From positions 1 through 38,930 of the forward strand of contig JACPKF010000001.1 of the NCBI GenBank assembly GCA_016187125.1: a stretch of DNA of 38,930 nucleotides, given 5' to 3'. Origin of the DNA: Candidatus Saccharimonadota bacterium. GTDB taxonomy: Bacteria > Patescibacteriota > Saccharimonadia > Saccharimonadales > UBA10212. Below are positions 1 to 26,954 of the stretch, in pieces. The translations under genes were made by a program, and so were the position numbers. Numbering within the stretch: the first letter of the stretch is position 1; each line of letters opens with the position of its first letter. The notes under the pieces were generated by a model. The model ran no database searches and was not told the DNA's origin. It saw nothing but the letters and a program-made list of their open reading frames with translations.

Positions 1-399
1 AATAACCCCGTCAGCCACAGCATAGATTGGCGGGTAGTTGCTGTGAGCCGTACCGCCGCGCGGCCATTTCTTGTACATGTCTTCAAAATTGACATGGCCG
101 CCGGTGTGCGGCGTGATAGCCCGTTTACCTTTATAGGGATGGCCACTGCCAATGACGTCGAAGTCGACTATGAATTGGTCAGTCGGATGGCTTTTAAAGT
201 AAGAGATATCCGGCAGAGCTGCCAGCGGATCGGATGGTTTAGTTGACGGCTGCTTAGCAACAGAAGAACTGGTGGCCAGACTGGCCGGCGATTTTTTATG
301 GTCCAAGACTTTCCAACCGGCCAGGCCGATGGTGCTGATGACTAAAACCAGCAAAAGGAGTACGCCCAAATGAGCCAAGCCTTTTTGTTGCATAAGCAT
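1..399 (-). CDS. N-terminal part (truncated by window edge) of a membrane-anchored, M23/LytM-like secreted protein
   Basis: Manual minus-strand translation gives MLMQQKGLAHLGVLLLLVLVISTIGLAGWKVLDHKKSP...AITPHTGGHVNFEDMYKKWPRGGTAHSNYPPIYAVADGVI, open to base 1 (133 codons). Missing from the ORF track because it has no stop in the window. M23 assignment is weak. Confidence 0.7.
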   Translation of the reverse strand, partial: MLMQQKGLAHLGVLLLLVLVISTIGLAGWKVLDHKKSPASLATSSSVAKQPSTKPSDPLAALPDISYFKSHPTDQFIVDFDVIGSGHPYKGKRAITPHTGGHVNFEDMYKKWPRGGTAHSNYPPIYAVADGVI

Positions 400-3884: not shown

Positions 3885-4256
3885 CTAGTCAACTTTTCCG
3901 TAGAAAGCAGCGGCTCCTTTTGTAATTTTTTTGTATTTCCACCCCTGTTTTTTACAATATATCTCGGCACTTTCACCCTTTAGCTTTGTGGATGTCCAGA
4001 ATAATAAAGGCAGGCCTTTTGTTTCATGAAGTTCTTTGCTCCCGTCCCGGTATTCAACTAGGAAATCAGGCCAGTAACTCCTTCTGAAGCCAAGGAGAGT
4101 GTATGGAATTTTTATACCGTGGTTCTTTGTCCAGCTTCTGACTGCTGGATCTCGTTCAAGCTCAACCATATACTGTCGTTCTAGTGCCGAATCGTATTTA
4201 TCCCAACCCTGAGGGTTTTTCTTCAGCTTAATCAATCTACCTCTTTTAGATATCAT
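3885..4256 (-). CDS. Stand-alone PDDEXK (TnsA/Type III Res-like) endonuclease
   Basis: 123 aa with ALERQYMVELERDP...SYWPDFLVEYRDGSKELHETKG (E...PD...ExK). Start codon overlaps the helicase stop (ATGA, 4253-4256). Confidence 0.75.
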   Translation of the reverse strand: MISKRGRLIKLKKNPQGWDKYDSALERQYMVELERDPAVRSWTKNHGIKIPYTLLGFRRSYWPDFLVEYRDGSKELHETKGLPLLFWTSTKLKGESAEIYCKKQGWKYKKITKGAAAFYGKVD

Positions 4257-6298
4257 CGCTTAGCTAATATTCCTTCGATTAATTCAGGTTGCAGGAATAC
4301 ATCTCTTACCTGATCAATCATGGCCCATAAGACTCGGAGTCTTTTTTCGTCCGCATCCTCTATATCTTTACCGAACAGGAATCTTTTTTGTATGTGAGCC
4401 TTAATTACCTTTATTAAATACACTTGGCGGTTATCAGGATTGCGGTCATATTCCAGCAGTGCGCTATTAGCAATAGAGTGTATTTGTTTCGCAAGCTGCT
4501 TTCGGAGTTCTTCCATATCCCAGTTTTCAGTATTTGTTTGTCTGGCAATATCGTTAACATCAATTTCCGGTAAGTTCTTATCAAGAGTTGCTAACTCTGA
4601 ATCAAGATTCAGGCTTTTAATTTGCGCGATGTCTTGGGATATATTCATCTTACGAGGATCATATTCTATCTCATCAAGGTACTCTTGCCATTCATAAATC
4701 GGCTTCACTACTCCTGGAGGTTCTGGTGTAGGCGGTAAATTGGAAAGGTCGAGTTTTTCAGCTTCTTCAAGACTTTTCTCACCCTCTTCAATTATTTCGC
4801 TAGTATCTTTTTCTGTGGGTATTTTTGCCTCATCGATGACAATATTAGCCGGGTCAAGACTGTCGGGATATGTAGTTGCTTTAAGGTTTTCCCATAGCCA
4901 TTGGTGTTTGAGGATGGGATGATCTACGACATAGAGTGATTCCCACTCCTCCTTACTCTTTCCCATCCGCCTAAGCCCCCGTCCGATTACCTGGGGACCG
5001 TAAACAGATTTCTTTTCTCCATTAACTTCTTTATAGCTAAATTTTCTGAATAGTAACTCCACAGCGATATTTCTTACGTCCCAGCCTTCACGTAGCATTA
5101 AAACCGAAATTACTGCATCAAACTCGGGGTGCGGGTTTTTATTTAGAGTTTTAGCCTTCTCAACCTCTTCATCATCTTGCTCGTTGTGTACCAAGATAAA
5201 TTTGTTTACGTCGTAGCCGGGTCCTAACTTTTCTAGTTCTCGAGCTATATTTTCTGCATCCTTAATGGACAAAGCTATGATAAAAAGCAAAGGTTTAAAT
5301 CTTGGCCGTCCGTCTTTGCCTCGTGGTACAGCCAATCGCTGTTTTTTAAGTAGTTCAAGTGCTATAGCAAGCTGCTGCCTCATTGGCTTCACGCTTGTAA
5401 TGTATCTTCTTGCTGGTATCTTACGTTTTTCTATCTCTTCCCAGGGAACTTCTTCGGCAGATATGGTTTGACCGGTTTCCAGATCCTCGTAAGTTAAATG
5501 CACTTTAGTTACATCGGGATGAAAAACCACAATTCGCTTGATTATTTTATCGCGCATGGCCTCAGCAATGCTGTAAACAAAAACCATTTCGCTGTCCGGG
5601 TGTAGGCCATCAAGACGATCAGGCGTGGCTGTCGTATCAAGCCTGAAAAATCTCTTTGGCTTGAGTTTATTAATCAGGTTGTTGTATAGCTCGGCTTTGG
5701 TGTTGTGTGCCTCATCGTTAAAGATAGCCAGTGAATCAACGTTTTCCAGGATTACTTTCCAGTTGTCGGTCTTCTCATAAATTTGCTGGATATTACCAAT
5801 CAAAATCGTAGCCGCCCGCACTCCTGCCGAGCTTTCACCTTGTTGCATAACATGCAATGAGATTCTCTCTTGCAGAGGCTTGTACGAATTAAAGAAAAAC
5901 GGGAAAACTCTATACACATACGATTCTGAGTTCGGGTCAAACTCGTCCGTTAACCGCGAACGAACTATAGTGTTGGGTGTAAGTACTAAAAACTTCGTTT
6001 GGCCGTGGACAATCATCATGTAAGCAATCATCGCTCCAATAATGGTCGTCTTGCCGCCACCGGTAACAATATTTGTCAAAACATCCTTTACACCCAAAAT
6101 CTCGAATGAGTAAACACATCGCTCAATAGCTTCAACCTGCACTTTCTTCCACTGATTTTCATTCCATAGCTCCAGGTCAGGCTTAAAATGCTTAGAATTA
6201 ATGTGCTTTAGGTAAGCAACCCCGGCATCCGGTATGCCTGCGTATGTTTTTCGCCATTCTCCAAAGTTAGCCTCGTGTTGTTTGAAGAAATATTGCAT
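4253..6298 (-). CDS. Type III restriction Res-like DEAD/DEAH helicase subunit without an obvious C-terminal nuclease
   Basis: 681 aa; Walker A TGGGKT, DEAH (IFNDEAH), TATPDR, VIGRGLRR. Confidence 0.85.
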   Translation of the reverse strand: MQYFFKQHEANFGEWRKTYAGIPDAGVAYLKHINSKHFKPDLELWNENQWKKVQVEAIERCVYSFEILGVKDVLTNIVTGGGKTTIIGAMIAYMMIVHGQTKFLVLTPNTIVRSRLTDEFDPNSESYVYRVFPFFFNSYKPLQERISLHVMQQGESSAGVRAATILIGNIQQIYEKTDNWKVILENVDSLAIFNDEAHNTKAELYNNLINKLKPKRFFRLDTTATPDRLDGLHPDSEMVFVYSIAEAMRDKIIKRIVVFHPDVTKVHLTYEDLETGQTISAEEVPWEEIEKRKIPARRYITSVKPMRQQLAIALELLKKQRLAVPRGKDGRPRFKPLLFIIALSIKDAENIARELEKLGPGYDVNKFILVHNEQDDEEVEKAKTLNKNPHPEFDAVISVLMLREGWDVRNIAVELLFRKFSYKEVNGEKKSVYGPQVIGRGLRRMGKSKEEWESLYVVDHPILKHQWLWENLKATTYPDSLDPANIVIDEAKIPTEKDTSEIIEEGEKSLEEAEKLDLSNLPPTPEPPGVVKPIYEWQEYLDEIEYDPRKMNISQDIAQIKSLNLDSELATLDKNLPEIDVNDIARQTNTENWDMEELRKQLAKQIHSIANSALLEYDRNPDNRQVYLIKVIKAHIQKRFLFGKDIEDADEKRLRVLWAMIDQVRDVFLQPELIEGILAKR

Positions 6299-6299
6299 T

Positions 6300-8390
6300 T
6301 TAGTTTACTACTACCTTCATATCCATAATCGTTTCACCGGCTAAGTTGTCCTGTACCTTACAGGCAACGATATATTCACCTGATTTCTCGAATTTATACT
6401 TTGCGGCTAAGGCTGCCTCGAAAATTTCACCTCGTTTAGAATCTCTTTTCTTCTCGCGTGATAGTACATAATTTTTATCTGAGGCAAAATGTCCCTCTTG
6501 ATAATCGAAATCCCATTGGCAGTTTACTAGCCAACCATTTTCGTTGGTTGATATCGCATCGACTGCCTCAAACTCGTATTCAAGCTTACTTGTCCTTTTA
6601 GCTTTTATGGCACCGATACCTGGTGGCTTAGAGAATCGCAGAAATAATTCGGCTTCCTCAACACCCGGCATTCTCTGCAGGATTCGTTTCCTGAATTCTT
6701 TAGAGTCCAGAGGAATCGCCTCAATGTCGAGAGGTAGGTTGTTTTTTTCGGAATATTTTTTTAGGATGTCGATATATTTTAAAGCCTCCCTAGAAAATCG
6801 CCAAGCAATAATTTTAGCCCGTACCATTTTGTTAGGCTCTAACTTAACCTTTATGGCATCAAAAAACTTCTGTATGTCCTTCGGGTCAATTGACTCATTC
6901 GGGTCGGCTGGTCCAATGTATAAGGGTTCCTGCTGAGCAGGAGGCTTGAAACCGTGAATAAAAGATTCTCCTGTATTACGGCTCGCTCCATAGGCTGTAA
7001 GCACAAAATTAATAAACTCTTCGTGGTCTAGGTTTGCAAACTTTTCTACTGGGTAAACTCCAAGGTAGCTAACCTCAATATTGGGTACTTTCTCAGTAAT
7101 GCCTTCTGTTTGTAGTCCCATTTGAAAAGACTCTTCTTTAGCAGAAATGTTGCTTTCTACCCCGCTCATTTTCTCCCCAAGTTTGATCAGTCTATCTAGG
7201 GTCACTGAAACCGCCACCCTGGAAGAATCAACCCCAATAAAATGGCGATTAAGTCTTTGAGCTACAGCTGTAGTAGTGCCACCACCAATAAAGAAATCTG
7301 CAATAATATCACCCTCACTTGAGGACATTTTTATTATCCGTTCGACAATTGATTCTGGTTTTTGGGTAGGATATCCAATCGATTCGCTATGCCATGAGTT
7401 TATAGATTGAAGTTCTTTTTCTATCCAAAGACTTTGTACTGGTACTCCTGGCATTTCATCCATATATTGTTTCAGTCGCGGTATACCGTTTTTTGTATAG
7501 AAAAGCTTACCTTGCTTATCGAGCTTTTCCATATTATCTCGTGTGTATCGCCAATTACGAGTGATACCTTTCCACTCATATCGAGGACCTCGACCCCCGG
7601 GAGCGCTGCAATCCCTCGAAAGCCATTTTCTACCGTCTGGATCAGAGTAACGGTAGTAATTCTCTATGTAATCGGCATCATAATTTGTGTATTCTGGATT
7701 CCACTTCCATTGATTCGACTTCGAGTAAAAATGAATTGTGTCATGAATATTACCGAGAGAACCGCTATCACTGTGAGCTGTGCTTCTTTTCCAGATTATC
7801 TCTGAGCGATAATTTTCATACCCAAAAATCTTATCTAGCTCGGCCTTTATATAATGGCTTGCGTGCCAGTCGCAATGGACATAAATACTACCAGTTTTCT
7901 TGAGCACACGTCGCATCTCCCAAAGTCTTGCATTTAACCAAATTAAATAGCTGGTTATGCCGCCCTCCCAGATATCCTCAAAAGTGCGAACTTCATTCGT
8001 GTCTCCCCAAATCACGTTATAATTTCGCCCACTAAAAAAAGGCGGATCTATATAAATCAAATCTATTGATTCACTTTTCAGCGTCCTTAGAACCTCGAGA
8101 TTATCTCCTAGGTATAGTCTGTTTGCTGGAGAGTCGGGATCATTAAAAATAACCGTATCGCCGTGATTTTTAGGGTGAAGGGAAGGAATGTTTATGTAAG
8201 GGAAAACTCTGTCAAATGCTTTATGGTCATCGTAACCCAGCGGAGGATTAGCCGGATCAGGTAGGTTATGAAGTCGTTGACGGATTTTAGAAGAAACAGA
8301 AGTAACAGTTTTTTGATCCGGTCTTAGCTGCTGCTCGGATTCTTTTTGGATTTTTTCTAATTCTTCAACTGTATAGCTATCTTCCGCCAT
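6300..8390 (-). CDS. Type III-like (beta-class) DNA methyltransferase Mod
   Basis: 696 aa; DPPFFSGRNY before DFFIGGGTTTAVAQRLNRHFIGVD; next to the Res-like helicase. Confidence 0.87.
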   Translation of the reverse strand: MAEDSYTVEELEKIQKESEQQLRPDQKTVTSVSSKIRQRLHNLPDPANPPLGYDDHKAFDRVFPYINIPSLHPKNHGDTVIFNDPDSPANRLYLGDNLEVLRTLKSESIDLIYIDPPFFSGRNYNVIWGDTNEVRTFEDIWEGGITSYLIWLNARLWEMRRVLKKTGSIYVHCDWHASHYIKAELDKIFGYENYRSEIIWKRSTAHSDSGSLGNIHDTIHFYSKSNQWKWNPEYTNYDADYIENYYRYSDPDGRKWLSRDCSAPGGRGPRYEWKGITRNWRYTRDNMEKLDKQGKLFYTKNGIPRLKQYMDEMPGVPVQSLWIEKELQSINSWHSESIGYPTQKPESIVERIIKMSSSEGDIIADFFIGGGTTTAVAQRLNRHFIGVDSSRVAVSVTLDRLIKLGEKMSGVESNISAKEESFQMGLQTEGITEKVPNIEVSYLGVYPVEKFANLDHEEFINFVLTAYGASRNTGESFIHGFKPPAQQEPLYIGPADPNESIDPKDIQKFFDAIKVKLEPNKMVRAKIIAWRFSREALKYIDILKKYSEKNNLPLDIEAIPLDSKEFRKRILQRMPGVEEAELFLRFSKPPGIGAIKAKRTSKLEYEFEAVDAISTNENGWLVNCQWDFDYQEGHFASDKNYVLSREKKRDSKRGEIFEAALAAKYKFEKSGEYIVACKVQDNLAGETIMDMKVVVN

Positions 8391-9325: not shown

Positions 9326-10303
9326 ATGCAAAATCGGCAGTCTGGCTTTAGCCATATAGGTCTGCTGTTGCTAGTAGTTGTACTGGCGATGGTTGGTTTT
9401 GTCGGCTGGTATGTTTATGACAAAAATCAAGATAAGGCAACGACGTCATCCAATCCGTCCGGGTCGTCTGCCATCTCCGTGTCGGCCGACAAATGGCAGA
9501 CGACCGGCCTGGCGGTGGCTGGCAATTACGCCGACGCCGATGTGGTCGCCCTAGGCGACGGGCGGTATCGGCTTTACTATTCGCTGGAACCCGAGCAGCC
9601 GGGATTTAACGGCCAAGTTTATTCCTCGATTTCAACCGATGGTAAAAATTGGACTAAGGAAGATGGTACGAGAATTGAACAGGCGACTTTTCCCTCCATC
9701 CTTAAGCTGCCGGATGGCACGTTCAGAATGTATTATCAAAATGCCAACGCTATTAAAAGTGCCACATCCTCAGACGGCCTTGCTTGGAGCCTAGAGTCCG
9801 GGACGAGGATTGATACGTCCAATACGGTGGGGCTTAGCTTAACGAACGTTGGTGCTCCCACAGTGGCAAAAATAGCAGACAAGTATGTGATGGTCTATTT
9901 CGGCGCGATAAACCAGAAATACACCGCTGTTGGAATGGTTCCCAACAATGAGACTCATCCACTACTTTGGGCAACCTCCACTGACGGTCTTACTTTTGAA
10001 AAGCAAGGTATAGCCTTAGACAGCCGAAATAGTGTCTTTAAGGGCTGGATGGACGGACCTGAGCTAATAGCTTGGGACGGCAATGAGCATCGTCTTTACT
10101 TTTGGGGATACAAAGGAGTTTATTATTCTGTCTTGGCTGATGATAAGTTTTCTGAGCCGCGACTGACTTACACTACAGCCACCGGCAATCAAGAATTTCC
10201 GGAAAATCCACCCGGTGACCCAACGCTGATAAAAATTAACAATACTTGGAACATGTACTACGGCGGACATCAAAAAGGCATCTACCGCGCCGTTTTGCAA
10301 TAA
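9326..10303 (+). CDS. Membrane-anchored beta-propeller (sialidase/GH43-like) surface protein
   Basis: Likely start MQNRQSGFSHIGLLLLVVVLAMVGFVGWYVYDKN, then repeated SxDGxxW blades. ORF track start is 9311. Confidence 0.75.
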   Translation: MQNRQSGFSHIGLLLLVVVLAMVGFVGWYVYDKNQDKATTSSNPSGSSAISVSADKWQTTGLAVAGNYADADVVALGDGRYRLYYSLEPEQPGFNGQVYSSISTDGKNWTKEDGTRIEQATFPSILKLPDGTFRMYYQNANAIKSATSSDGLAWSLESGTRIDTSNTVGLSLTNVGAPTVAKIADKYVMVYFGAINQKYTAVGMVPNNETHPLLWATSTDGLTFEKQGIALDSRNSVFKGWMDGPELIAWDGNEHRLYFWGYKGVYYSVLADDKFSEPRLTYTTATGNQEFPENPPGDPTLIKINNTWNMYYGGHQKGIYRAVLQ

Positions 10304-10320: not shown

Positions 10321-11172
10321 TTATTTACAGTAGTCGCTGGTCTTACCACTTTGCGAGTCAGACGATGGCAGAGCTCTGACTTTAGCTTCTTCATCGGCCC
10401 CAAGTAGGTCAAACCAACAAACAGCATATTGTTCGGTATTACTGGGGTGTTTGGCAGCCCAGTCGGCGTTCTTGGAGGCCTCGTTTTTGCTGCGCAGATC
10501 ATACATCCCCCAATCAACAAAGACATTTATGGTATTTCGATCACCCTTGACAATACCAACGGCCGTGGCCAGTGTTTCGCCGGCTTTAAAGGACAGTGGC
10601 GGGTTAATTCGAGTATCACGGGAATCGCCCTCTCTGTTTTGCGGCAATTTGTCGGCAATAGCTTGGAGCTTCGGGCTCAAGCTCAGCATATGGCCAAAAC
10701 GGTACATGTAACCGCAAGCAGCGATAAAGTCAAAAACGTACTGAGTCTCGCCATTAACTGGGTAGCGGGCGCCGCGAATAACATCGGCGTCCATCGGCGC
10801 CGTTACAGTCAGGTCATTATTGGCATTGTTGTCAAACCTAAAGCCGCCGTGGGGTTTATAATCTCCGCCGCGGTATTGCCCGGGATAAAGGATTGATGTA
10901 GCCAGACTAAGATCGACTGGAAATTTAACTAGCGGATCCGGGCAGTTGGGTGGTGTACCGCTCGGCTGCCAGCTTCCACCTTCGTCGGTCCAGGTGATTT
11001 TCGCAAGCTTTGCATCCGATGCTGAAGTTTTAATCTGGTAGCTACTACCCTTTTTATTGTCATTAGATTTTGAGCTATAAGCCCGCCAGCCGCCAAAACC
11101 AACTACACCTAGGATGATAATTACAAGCAGTAATACGAAATGACTAAAGCCTTTTGGGGCTGGCGTTGCCAT
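10321..11172 (-). CDS. Membrane-anchored, M23-like surface protein
   Basis: MATPAPKGFSHFVLLLVIIILGVVGFGGWRAYSSKSND; YKPHGGFRFD...VTAPMDADVIRG...YRFGHM...KAGETLA resembles a (possibly degenerate) LytM/M23 fold. Confidence 0.65.
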   Translation of the reverse strand: MATPAPKGFSHFVLLLVIIILGVVGFGGWRAYSSKSNDNKKGSSYQIKTSASDAKLAKITWTDEGGSWQPSGTPPNCPDPLVKFPVDLSLATSILYPGQYRGGDYKPHGGFRFDNNANNDLTVTAPMDADVIRGARYPVNGETQYVFDFIAACGYMYRFGHMLSLSPKLQAIADKLPQNREGDSRDTRINPPLSFKAGETLATAVGIVKGDRNTINVFVDWGMYDLRSKNEASKNADWAAKHPSNTEQYAVCWFDLLGADEEAKVRALPSSDSQSGKTSDYCK

Positions 11173-11173
11173 T

Positions 11174-12193
11174 TTATTGGTTCGGTGAGGCCAGTTTGTA
11201 GATCATCAGCCAGCTGTTGTTATCAAGTTGTACTGGTGACGGATCGCAAATAATTTTACCGGCCGCAGCCGTTAGATTAACACTTTCGTCCACCCAGTTA
11301 ATGCCGTCGGTTGTTGTCGAGCTGCTGATGCCGTTGGCGCAATAGAACTGCCGGTATTTGCCATCTCCGACTGACACGGTTTTAGATACTGAGCCTTTTT
11401 GGCGGGCGATACCTTGATAGGTGAAACTGGAACCATCATTCGAAGTAGCATAAATCTGTTTTGGTCCTTGGGCGAGGTACATAAACCAACGATTGTCGAT
11501 CTTGATTACGTCAGGATCTGTAATTTGCCCGTACTCGAAGCGAACACCCTGCTCTTCCTTAAAATTAATGCCATCACTACTGGTGGCGCTGTAGACTCTA
11601 TTAACCGAAGTTGGCGGCTGTCCAGGGGTCGGCGGACCAGGAAAAGCTATATAGAAAAGACGAAGTTTGCCAGAATCGGTCAGTGTAATTTGCGGATCAG
11701 CTACACCGCCGACGCGTGAACTGGTTAGCTGCATAGAGCCGGCGGTCCAAGTTTTACCCTGATCACTTGACACCGCTACCAATATCCCTGATTTTGAGCG
11801 GGCAGCGCCATCAACTGCATAAATAACAATTTGTCCTGAGGGTAATTTCATGGCATCCGGTACTGAGGCATGGTTTAGGATTTGAGTAGCGCCGCCAGAG
11901 AAACGCACTCCGTCTGGCGAAGAAGCGGTATGGACATCATGATAAAACGGGCCGTTTTTATCACCAATCGGATCGGCAACCGCCGCCTTCTGATCAAAAT
12001 CTAGTTTGGCTATATCAATTTGGTTGATTTTCCCAGACCTATCAGGCGTTAAAGCAAGCTGTTCGACAGCGCTCGGCTGGTTTTTAGAACTATTTTTAAA
12101 AACCCGCCAGGCTGCAATTCCAGCGACGCCCAGGACTAAAATAACTAAAACTATGGCGACAAGGTGAAAGCCATTTTGATTTTTATTAGCCAC
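11174..12193 (-). CDS. Membrane-anchored beta-propeller surface protein (paralogue of 9326-10303)
   Basis: MANKNQNGFHLVAIVLVILVLGVAGIAAWRVFKN; Asp-box SSDQGKTW and SSDGINF repeats. Confidence 0.75.
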   Translation of the reverse strand: MANKNQNGFHLVAIVLVILVLGVAGIAAWRVFKNSSKNQPSAVEQLALTPDRSGKINQIDIAKLDFDQKAAVADPIGDKNGPFYHDVHTASSPDGVRFSGGATQILNHASVPDAMKLPSGQIVIYAVDGAARSKSGILVAVSSDQGKTWTAGSMQLTSSRVGGVADPQITLTDSGKLRLFYIAFPGPPTPGQPPTSVNRVYSATSSDGINFKEEQGVRFEYGQITDPDVIKIDNRWFMYLAQGPKQIYATSNDGSSFTYQGIARQKGSVSKTVSVGDGKYRQFYCANGISSSTTTDGINWVDESVNLTAAAGKIICDPSPVQLDNNSWLMIYKLASPNQ

Positions 12194-12209: not shown

Positions 12210-12698
12210 TTATTTAATCTCGTAGCCGTATATGCACCATTGGTCGCTTTTTTTCAGCAAGCTTACTGCCAGAGTAGAATTGGGGCTCAGGGGTCCGACT
12301 GAACCACTGATTTTGGCCTGATTATTACGCACATCAGTGGATGTGTATTCGACATCGGAAAGATCGATAGTTTGAAAACCGGGATTGCTGAGATATGATT
12401 GGAATTTTTCATATGTCATCAAGCTTTTAAAGTCCGGACAAGTGACTTTGTAAGCTTCCTGGATTTTCTTCTGGTAAACCAATGTAAAGTGTTCTTTGGC
12501 GGCCGCTTTGACAGCTTTTTGATCAGCCGTCTCTTTAGATGCCGAAGAGCTAGCTGTAATACTTGTTGGTGAGCTGTTTTTGGCGGATTTGGAGTCGTTC
12601 TTGGCAAACACAAAATAGCCAACGCCAGCTATGGCTACCACTGCGACGACGGCTGCCACGATCATCGTATGGCCAAAACCGGTTTGATTATTTTTCAT
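12210..12698 (-). CDS. Membrane-anchored hypothetical protein, possibly NTF2/DUF4878-like
   Basis: MKNNQTGFGHTMIVAAVVAVVAIAGVGYFVFAKND; KEHFTLVYQKKIQEAYKVTCPDFKSLMTYEKFQSYL. Confidence 0.6.
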   Translation of the reverse strand: MKNNQTGFGHTMIVAAVVAVVAIAGVGYFVFAKNDSKSAKNSSPTSITASSSASKETADQKAVKAAAKEHFTLVYQKKIQEAYKVTCPDFKSLMTYEKFQSYLSNPGFQTIDLSDVEYTSTDVRNNQAKISGSVGPLSPNSTLAVSLLKKSDQWCIYGYEIK

Positions 12699-12831: not shown

Positions 12832-13575
12832 CTATCTAATAATGCCCTTTTTTACCTTGGCCGCGAAAGCATTGCAATTAAATTTCGGATCTCGGCCTTT
12901 TTTATAGGGGCTATCCTTGACGACAACCCACTCAGGAAGTAGATGTATCTCAAAAGGAGGATCGGAGGGTAATTTTACTCGGCACATAGTGTAATAATGT
13001 ATTTGGCCACTTTCCGAATGACGAGGGGTCCCGTCGTCAATGTCTACTACTTGCCAGCTCTCTCTAGTTTTTGCCAATGTCCGATTAGCTTTTTGATTAA
13101 CCGAAAGCGCTAGCAGATGAATATTGTTGTCTACTGCTTTGATACCTCGTGGCCATGACTCAACTTCTTTTTCTATGTTGTCCCGAGCCGGCGGCCAGTA
13201 GCGAGTTTCAAAATGGTGTTTAGCTCCGCCCTTTACGCGATCGTAGCTTGTGCGGCCATAAGCATAATAAGGCGCTCTGGCACCTACGGGGACCCCAAGG
13301 ATTACATGGCCGATAGCATTCTCTATTAAAGCTATACAGGCTCTACGCTCCCCATTTGGGGAATTAAAAGTATACGGTGCACAGTCATCTAGGCCATCGG
13401 CTGTGACTTGACGAGCTTCGGCTGCTTGAACTCCTCCACCCAGTCCACTAAACAAGGCTGCGGCACAGGCTATCTGTGCGCCAACTGTAGGCATTCTGCC
13501 GCGCCAAAGATTTCCACATTCATACGACATAATTACATTCTTGTAGTTCTTTTTGCTAAATGCAAGCACTAGCAA
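12832..13575 (-). CDS. Hypothetical exported protein
   Basis: 247-aa ORF with hydrophobic N-terminal segment (PTVGAQIACAAALFSGLGGGVQAAEA). Confidence 0.6.
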   Translation of the reverse strand: MLVLAFSKKNYKNVIMSYECGNLWRGRMPTVGAQIACAAALFSGLGGGVQAAEARQVTADGLDDCAPYTFNSPNGERRACIALIENAIGHVILGVPVGARAPYYAYGRTSYDRVKGGAKHHFETRYWPPARDNIEKEVESWPRGIKAVDNNIHLLALSVNQKANRTLAKTRESWQVVDIDDGTPRHSESGQIHYYTMCRVKLPSDPPFEIHLLPEWVVVKDSPYKKGRDPKFNCNAFAAKVKKGIIR

Positions 13576-21942: not shown

Positions 21943-21997
21943 ATAGTTCTATAAAAGTCTAGCATGGCTGGGGCGCAGGTATTGTTACAATATGATC

Positions 21998-26417: not shown

Positions 26418-26954
26418 CTATTTAACCTCAAACGGGATATCAACTACCAAAACATTATTGATGTAAGCCTTGTATTCGTAACGACCGGCAGCTACGCCCA
26501 ATGTTCCACAACCCGAGCTGGTGCCTTGCCCTGGACCCAATTCGCCTGGAAATACGGCTACAGGCACAGCGTTTTGTTTAGTCGCTACACTATATATAGT
26601 TGAGGAAAGGCTGCCCGATGGGACTTGTTTTAGGACAATCATATTTTGGCAAAGTTGGTCGGTTGAACTATTAAATGTAGTTGTATCGGTAGGGATATCA
26701 TTTGGCGGACTGATATGTTTTCCGTTGGCAAGCTTAGCCAGGCTGAATGATGAAAAGTACTGATTAAACAGTGTTTTATCTGGCTGTTCTGAGGTAGCCG
26801 CTGGAGATGGTGTAGATGAGGTAGTCGCTGTTGTTGAACTAGGCTTGCTGTTGTTTTTACCCACGAACCAAGCCCCAGCGCCTACGATGACAATAACAAC
26901 TGCAATAATCAGAAACTCCACCGCACTAAACCCCTGTTCATTCTTCTTTTTCAT
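26418..26954 (-). CDS. Prepilin-like (canonical Glu5) anchored protein
   Basis: MKKKNEQGFSAVEFLIIAVVIVIVGAGAWFVGKNNSK. Confidence 0.7.
   Translation of the reverse strand: MKKKNEQGFSAVEFLIIAVVIVIVGAGAWFVGKNNSKPSSTTATTSSTPSPAATSEQPDKTLFNQYFSSFSLAKLANGKHISPPNDIPTDTTTFNSSTDQLCQNMIVLKQVPSGSLSSTIYSVATKQNAVPVAVFPGELGPGQGTSSGCGTLGVAAGRYEYKAYINNVLVVDIPFEVK

What the first reader, a model, noticed from the sequence alone, without database searches (positions are those of the whole stretch)
1..399. Family of surface proteins sharing a prepilin-like N-terminus with His+3 instead of Glu+5
Proteins at 1-399(-), 9326, 10321, 11174, 12210 and 26418 begin with a short polar leader, then G(F/L) and a long hydrophobic helix ending in GW/AW and a charged stretch: QKGLAHLGVLLLLVLV, QSGFSHIGLLLLVVVL, PKGFSHFVLLLVIIIL, QNGFHLVAIVLVILVL, QTGFGHTMIVAAVVAV, EQGFSAVEFLIIAVVI. 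Only the last has the Glu5 of type IV prepilins; four of the others have His at +3. The domains behind it differ (beta-propeller, M23-like, NTF2-like). This suggests a portable sorting or anchoring module derived from prepilins, possibly cut by PilD but not assembled into a pilus.
Basis: partly seen in the sequence, partly recalled or inferred. Interest (0 to 1): 0.72.

Follow-up and report, generated by a model that had tools for sequence, protein, structure and literature searches.

The report
Pilin-type anchor on non-pilin surface proteins
In this tiny Saccharibacterium and its relatives, many unrelated surface proteins (sugar-enzyme-like propellers, cell-wall-peptidase-like domains, a serpin and others) carry the same pilin-style N-terminal tag, often without the glutamate that pilins need to build a filament, so a pilus signal seems to have been reused as a general surface anchor.

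Summary
All six window proteins begin with a short polar leader, Gly, a hydrophobic helix and a Trp/Tyr at +21/+22. The genome (Candidatus Saccharibacteria, 828 kb) has 14 such proteins, and 100 of 118 genomes of the order have at least one match. I extracted 136 members. Their ectodomains fall into 51 BLAST clusters (GH43/GH130-like propeller, LytM/M23, PsbP-like, serpin and others), so the tag is portable. Glu5 and His3 nearly exclude each other (Fisher p=2e-12). A search with a propeller ectodomain alone found 12 homologues; all 12 have the leader-Gly-helix, while +2/+3/+5 vary freely. Among close homologues the helix is less conserved than the ectodomain, unlike canonical pilins of the same order. 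The genome also has PilD, two PilC loci and ordinary Glu5 pilins elsewhere. Best reading: a class III (prepilin-type) signal reused as a membrane anchor, probably cut by PilD after Gly; His2/3 members are unlikely to homopolymerise. Cleavage and filament exclusion are inferred, not shown. The closest precedent is the archaeal bindosome. I found no description of this in the papers searched.

The parts
1..399 (-). Truncated gene; module MQQKG|LAHLGVLLLLVLVISTIGLAGW (His3), profile match 286-393
   Evidence: gene runs off the contig end
9326..10303 (+). Module MQNRQSG|FSHIGLLLLVVVLAMVGFVGW (His3; match 9332-9436), disordered linker, propeller like GH43/GH130
10321..11172 (-). Module MATPAPKG|FSHFVLLLVIIILGVVGFGGW (His3; match 11062-11160), LytM/M23-like domain
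11174..12193 (-). Module ANKNQNG|FHLVAIVLVILVLGVAGIAAW (His2; match 12080-12184), propeller (BNR-like), distant paralogue of 9326
12210..12698 (-). Module MKNNQTG|FGHTMIVAAVVAVVAIAGVGY (His3; match 12588-12692), small domain, weakly DUF4864/Rv0361-like
26418..26954 (-). Module MKKKNEQG|FSAVEFLIIAVVIVIVGAGAW (Glu5; match 26841-26945); Ser/Thr-rich linker, ectodomain unassigned
   Evidence: (N_methyl 17.4 bits, below the 21.2 cut-off)

Best explanation
A class III (prepilin-type) N-terminal signal has been reused in Saccharimonadales-like Patescibacteria as a portable export-and-anchor module for many unrelated ectodomains. Proposed steps: (1) the 6-9 residue leader (consensus K-x-N-Q-[K/S]-G) and the ~21-residue helix insert the protein N-in/C-out; (2) the prepilin peptidase PilD cuts after Gly on the cytoplasmic side; (3) the helix stays in the membrane, ended by Gly-Trp/Tyr, and holds the ectodomain on a Ser/Thr/Asn/Lys-rich tether; (4) members that lost Glu5 (often with His at +2/+3) cannot homopolymerise and act as monomeric anchors, while Glu5 members might still enter pili as minor subunits. 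SHOWN by sequence: the module, its portability, its kept Gly and leader, the Glu5/His2-3 alternation, no alpha1-C and non-pilin domains in the two modelled proteins. INFERRED: steps 1, 2 and 4 and the surface location.
For: 136 members from genomes of the order (one, L032, from another class) in 51 ectodomain clusters; domains include M23, PsbP_2, serpin, PepSY, NHL, B_lectin, plastocyanin. Search with the 302-residue ectodomain of 11174 alone: 12/12 homologues have leader-Gly-[FIL]-helix with Gln at -3 from the cut, but His2, His3, Glu5, both or neither behind it. Leaders of His2/3 members (Gln 31/41), Glu5 members (52/81) and canonical pilins (23/51) favour the same residue. His and Glu within +1..+21 are almost confined to +2/+3 and +5. 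Homologues with 72-83% identical ectodomains differ in state. For pairs with ectodomain identity of 45% or more, helix minus ectodomain identity has median -10 in module proteins and +37 in canonical pilins. Linker +26..+50 is 10% hydrophobic against 23% in canonical pilins. One PilD, two PilC loci and ordinary pilins lie elsewhere in this genome. Literature: Gly-1 critical and Glu5 always dispensable for processing; Glu5 mutants do not homopolymerise (PMC4471445).
Against: No cleavage data. Presence/absence of PilD cannot test it: 108/118 order genomes have PilD; three PilD-negative genomes of at least 97% completeness have no module hit, but so do several PilD-positive ones, and one 93% complete PilD-negative MAG (G358) has six. 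Glu5-less subunits can enter mixed filaments (PMC4471445), so exclusion from pili is not proven. The helix-conservation contrast is driven partly by major pilins, and pairs are not independent. The module is abundant in this genome but a minority of single-TM proteins in others (2/35, 3/25, 0/39).
Confidence: 0.62

Rival explanations
1. The proteins are minor (tip or adhesin) pilins: cut by PilD and built into the type IV pilus, like PilX2 of Nanosynbacter lyticus with its RCC1 propeller.
For: PilX2 carries a beta-propeller and a signal peptide that SignalP did not call, and its loss lowers host binding (PMC12206443). Glu5-less pilins can be incorporated with wild-type subunits (PMC4471445). 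81 of 136 members keep Glu5.
Against: An RCC1-bearing protein seen here (L298, G263) has a canonical GFTIVELL helix that runs on into a pilin-like region, unlike the module. Module genes lie outside the PilC/pilin loci of this genome. Fourteen different proteins in one genome and enzyme-like domains are odd for tip subunits. The modelled propeller member has a disordered tether instead of alpha1-C.
Confidence: 0.22
2. Plain uncleaved signal anchors whose N-terminus descends from a prepilin but is no longer processed.
For: A TM helix followed by a tether is enough to anchor a protein. Glu5 is lost in 40%, and the helix itself is weakly conserved.
Against: Gly and the Gln of the leader are kept in 12/12 homologues found without using the N-terminus, while the helix diverges. 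Other single-TM proteins of the same genome (for example VanY at 21992) show no such leader.
Confidence: 0.13
3. Chance resemblance or an artefact of the profile search.
For: Short hydrophobic profiles attract unrelated TM segments; beyond the order most hits were canonical pilins matching only the first ~24 model positions.
Against: Ectodomain-only search, aromatic at +21 or +22 in 135/136 (versus 13 of 51 canonical pilins), and none of the other single-TM proteins in 235 kb has the combination.
Confidence: 0.03

Closest known systems
Type IV prepilin class III signal peptide (PF07963, N_methyl)
   Same: Short hydrophilic leader, Gly at the cut, about 21 hydrophobic residues, mostly Phe at +1; Glu5 in 60% of members
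   Different: Glu5 missing in 40%, His at +2/+3 instead in 30%; Gly-Trp/Tyr stop at +21/+22, no alpha1-C; no pilin domain in modelled members; only 18 of 105 members match the Pfam model at E<=1e-3
Bindosome of Sulfolobus solfataricus (substrate-binding proteins with class III signals)
   Same: Large non-pilin proteins carry a pilin-type signal; Glu5 often absent in archaeal pilins
   Different: Archaeal, sugar-binding proteins, needs its own Bas PilB/PilC pair; here bacterial, dozens of ectodomain types, no linked assembly genes seen
PilX2/PilX1 of Nanosynbacter lyticus TM7x
   Same: Saccharibacterial, propeller on a pilin-type N-terminus, signal peptide missed by a predictor
   Different: Genetically tied to a T4P; the RCC1 homologue seen here has a canonical Glu5 pilin helix and an RCC1 propeller, not a GH43/GH130-like one

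Membership tests
Class III (type IV prepilin) signal peptide | Hydrophilic leader ending in Gly | tested here: met
   Gly in 136/136 (by search) and in 12/12 homologues found without it; leader mostly 6-9 aa
Class III (type IV prepilin) signal peptide | About 21 hydrophobic residues after the cut | tested here: met
   Aromatic stop at +21/+22 in 135/136, positions +6 to +20 almost free of polar residues
Class III (type IV prepilin) signal peptide | Glu at +5 | tested here: inconclusive
   81/136 have it, 55 do not; absent in 5 of the 6 window proteins
Class III (type IV prepilin) signal peptide | Cleavage by prepilin peptidase | not testable with these tools
   PilD present in own genome and 108/118 order genomes; no protein data
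Type IV pilin | Pilin fold: alpha1-C packed on a beta-sheet head | tested here: not met
   Models of 9326 and 10321: TM helix, low-confidence tether, then GH43/GH130-like propeller or LytM-like domain; other members not modelled
Type IV pilin | Assembly into a filament | not testable with these tools
   Helix poorly conserved and Glu5 often lost argue against homopolymers
Bindosome-type system | Linked PilB/PilC assembly genes | tested here: not met
   The window encodes none by inspection; PilC loci lie at C6:374 kb and C7:65 kb with canonical pilins

The most novel reading that the evidence does not exclude
Patescibacteria run a PilD-dependent surface-display pathway separate from pili: a class III signal sorts many unrelated ectodomains to the cell surface as monomers, and the residue at +5 (Glu) or +2/+3 (His, or Asn/Pro in other classes) sets whether the protein can or cannot enter a filament.
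Probability: 0.35. Interest if true: 0.8.

Novelty: new variant of a known kind. Interest (0 to 1): 0.62.

Why it matters
Saccharibacteria live on other bacteria, and how they display the proteins that touch the host is largely open. If this module is a PilD-dependent anchor, it gives a sequence tag that lists much of the surface proteome of these mostly uncultured cells, most of which Pfam's N_methyl model misses. It would give PilD a role beyond pili and be a bacterial counterpart of the archaeal bindosome principle. It also makes the role of Glu5 testable by natural variation.

Tried and rejected
PilD co-occurrence as a test of cleavage: both are nearly universal, and MAG incompleteness blurs the rest. 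Phylum-wide search with the order's profile: beyond the order it mostly returned canonical pilins. Ectodomain search with the M23-like protein at C6:347 kb: found only itself and its own paralogue. Sequence search of the 11174 propeller and the 10321 M23-like protein against solved structures: no match. RCC1 search for PilX2-like proteins: none in this genome; one hit in G263 has a canonical pilin N-terminus and the other readable N-termini were ordinary anchors or signal peptides. Papers on this in CPR: none found in the open-access library.

Full report
Observation. The six N-termini are in the sequence as described. 1-399 is cut by the contig end (the window is G000:C6:1-38930). His stands at +3 in four proteins and at +2 in 11174; Glu5 occurs only in 26418. 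NCBIfam and Pfam see only weak traces of a pilin N-terminus.

Own genome. A profile of the six, then one of 14, finds 14 members in the 828-kb genome. The eight outside the window carry an M23 peptidase-like domain (C6:347413 and its paralogue at C1:8138), a serpin (C6:357241), a PsbP-like domain (C2:13808) and others (domains and by eye). Of the 14, four have Glu5, seven His3, one His2, two neither. In a background sample of 235 kb, 8 of 22 genes with a single N-terminal TM segment carry the pattern (9 of 23 with the truncated one), and none of the rest does. In 200-kb samples of other genomes the share is smaller: 2/35, 3/25 and 0/39 in the order, and 2/36 looser ones in another class.

Organism. 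Relatives of the 9326 protein are in records named Candidatus Saccharibacteria, several from groundwater.

Order-wide family. 100 of 118 genomes of the order have matches at E<=1e-4 (in some families these include canonical pilins). From retrieved loci I extracted 136 distinct members. Consensus: M-K-K-N-Q-K-G|F-S-x-V-E-x-L-L-x2-V-V-x4-I-G-x2-G-W-x-V. Glu5 is present in 81, His3 in 41 (6 have both); 20 have neither Glu5 nor His3, some of them with His2 (Fisher p=1.6e-12 for exclusion; relatedness not removed). Counting His2 as well, 81 are Glu5, 41 are His2/3 without Glu5 and 14 neither. Polar residues inside the helix are almost confined to +2, +3 and +5. All but one member have an aromatic residue at +21 or +22.

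Portability. Ectodomains form 51 BLAST clusters, 42 of them single proteins. Pfam matches include PsbP_2, M23, serpin, PepSY, NHL, B_lectin, RskA_C and plastocyanin. AlphaFold models: 9326 has a helix at 9-33, a low-confidence tether at 34-55 and a propeller whose best PDB matches are mannoside phosphorylases (GH130) and GH43 enzymes (E about 1e-9; pLDDT 68). 10321 has a helix at 11-38 and a LytM/M23-like domain (pLDDT 85; best E 1.7e-3).

Test without the motif. To avoid selecting on the N-terminus I searched the order with the ectodomain of 11174 only. All 12 homologues (7 genomes, 32-100% identity over the matched part) have the leader, the Gly and the helix; at +2/+3/+5 they have His2 (3), His3 (4), Glu5 (1), His3 plus Glu5 (1), or neither (3). 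The 10321 family behaves alike: Gly invariant, Gln nearly so, Glu5 in L074, L119 and L137, His in the others. Homologues with ectodomains 83%, 79% and 72% identical differ in state. Parsimony needs at least 2 changes on the 16-member ectodomain tree and 11 on the weakly supported 51-member tree.

Unlike pilins. For pairs with ectodomain identity of 45% or more, helix minus ectodomain identity has median -10 points in module proteins (55 pairs) and +37 in canonical pilins of the order (24 pairs; p=2.6e-7; pairs not independent; major pilins dominate the latter). The segment after the helix is poor in hydrophobic residues (10% versus 23%). Canonical pilins of this genome lie next to PilC at C6:374-376 kb and C7:65-66 kb and next to PilD on C5, not near the module genes.

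Mechanism. [quoted passage not shown] The data fit this rule: what PilD is thought to read is kept, and what filament packing needs is not. So PilD cleavage followed by membrane anchoring is the best reading. Uncleaved anchors and minor pilins remain possible. The archaeal bindosome shows that such hijacking exists (PMC4371748).

Wider. Other Patescibacteria classes have similar Glu5-less N-termini with Asn, His or Pro at +3 (MNQKG|FANIILVV...GGYF, FIHILVII, FAPIIIIL), with the same MNQKG leader and Ser/Thr/Pro-rich linkers. This suggests the use is older or arose repeatedly; I did not test which.

Verdict. A new variant of a known kind.

Noticed in passing
window 3885-8390 (-): Genes resembling a type III-like restriction-modification pair (DNA methyltransferase 6300-8390, helicase/nuclease 4253-6298) with a TnsA-like small ORF at 3885-4256, judged by eye from the translations.
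   Followed up: no
L024, match at 1501 (+), G000:C9:6170: A predicted multi-pass membrane protein begins with a similar start (PTRGFSHFGHLVLVALL), so the GFSH start is not limited to single-TM proteins.
   Followed up: no
L298 (G263:C5, pilin helix at 280365): A canonical Glu5 pilin helix (GFTIVELLIVIVIIGILAAI) fused to a C-terminal RCC1 propeller, resembling PilX2 of TM7x.
   Followed up: partly
L264-L272, L281-L282: Other Patescibacteria classes have Glu5-less prepilin-like N-termini with Asn, His or Pro at +3 (GFANI, GFIHI, GFAPI) and Ser/Thr/Pro-rich linkers.
   Followed up: partly
G124 (same order, f2): This genome has 36 N_methyl matches, far more than most of the order.
   Followed up: no
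L115:310-2866: Four tandem module genes (GFAHIG) in G322; similar tandem arrays in G296:C4, G294:C6 and G314:C9.
   Followed up: no
window 12832-13575 (-): ORF with no Pfam or NCBIfam match, next to genes that look like dihydrofolate reductase and thymidylate synthase.
   Followed up: no
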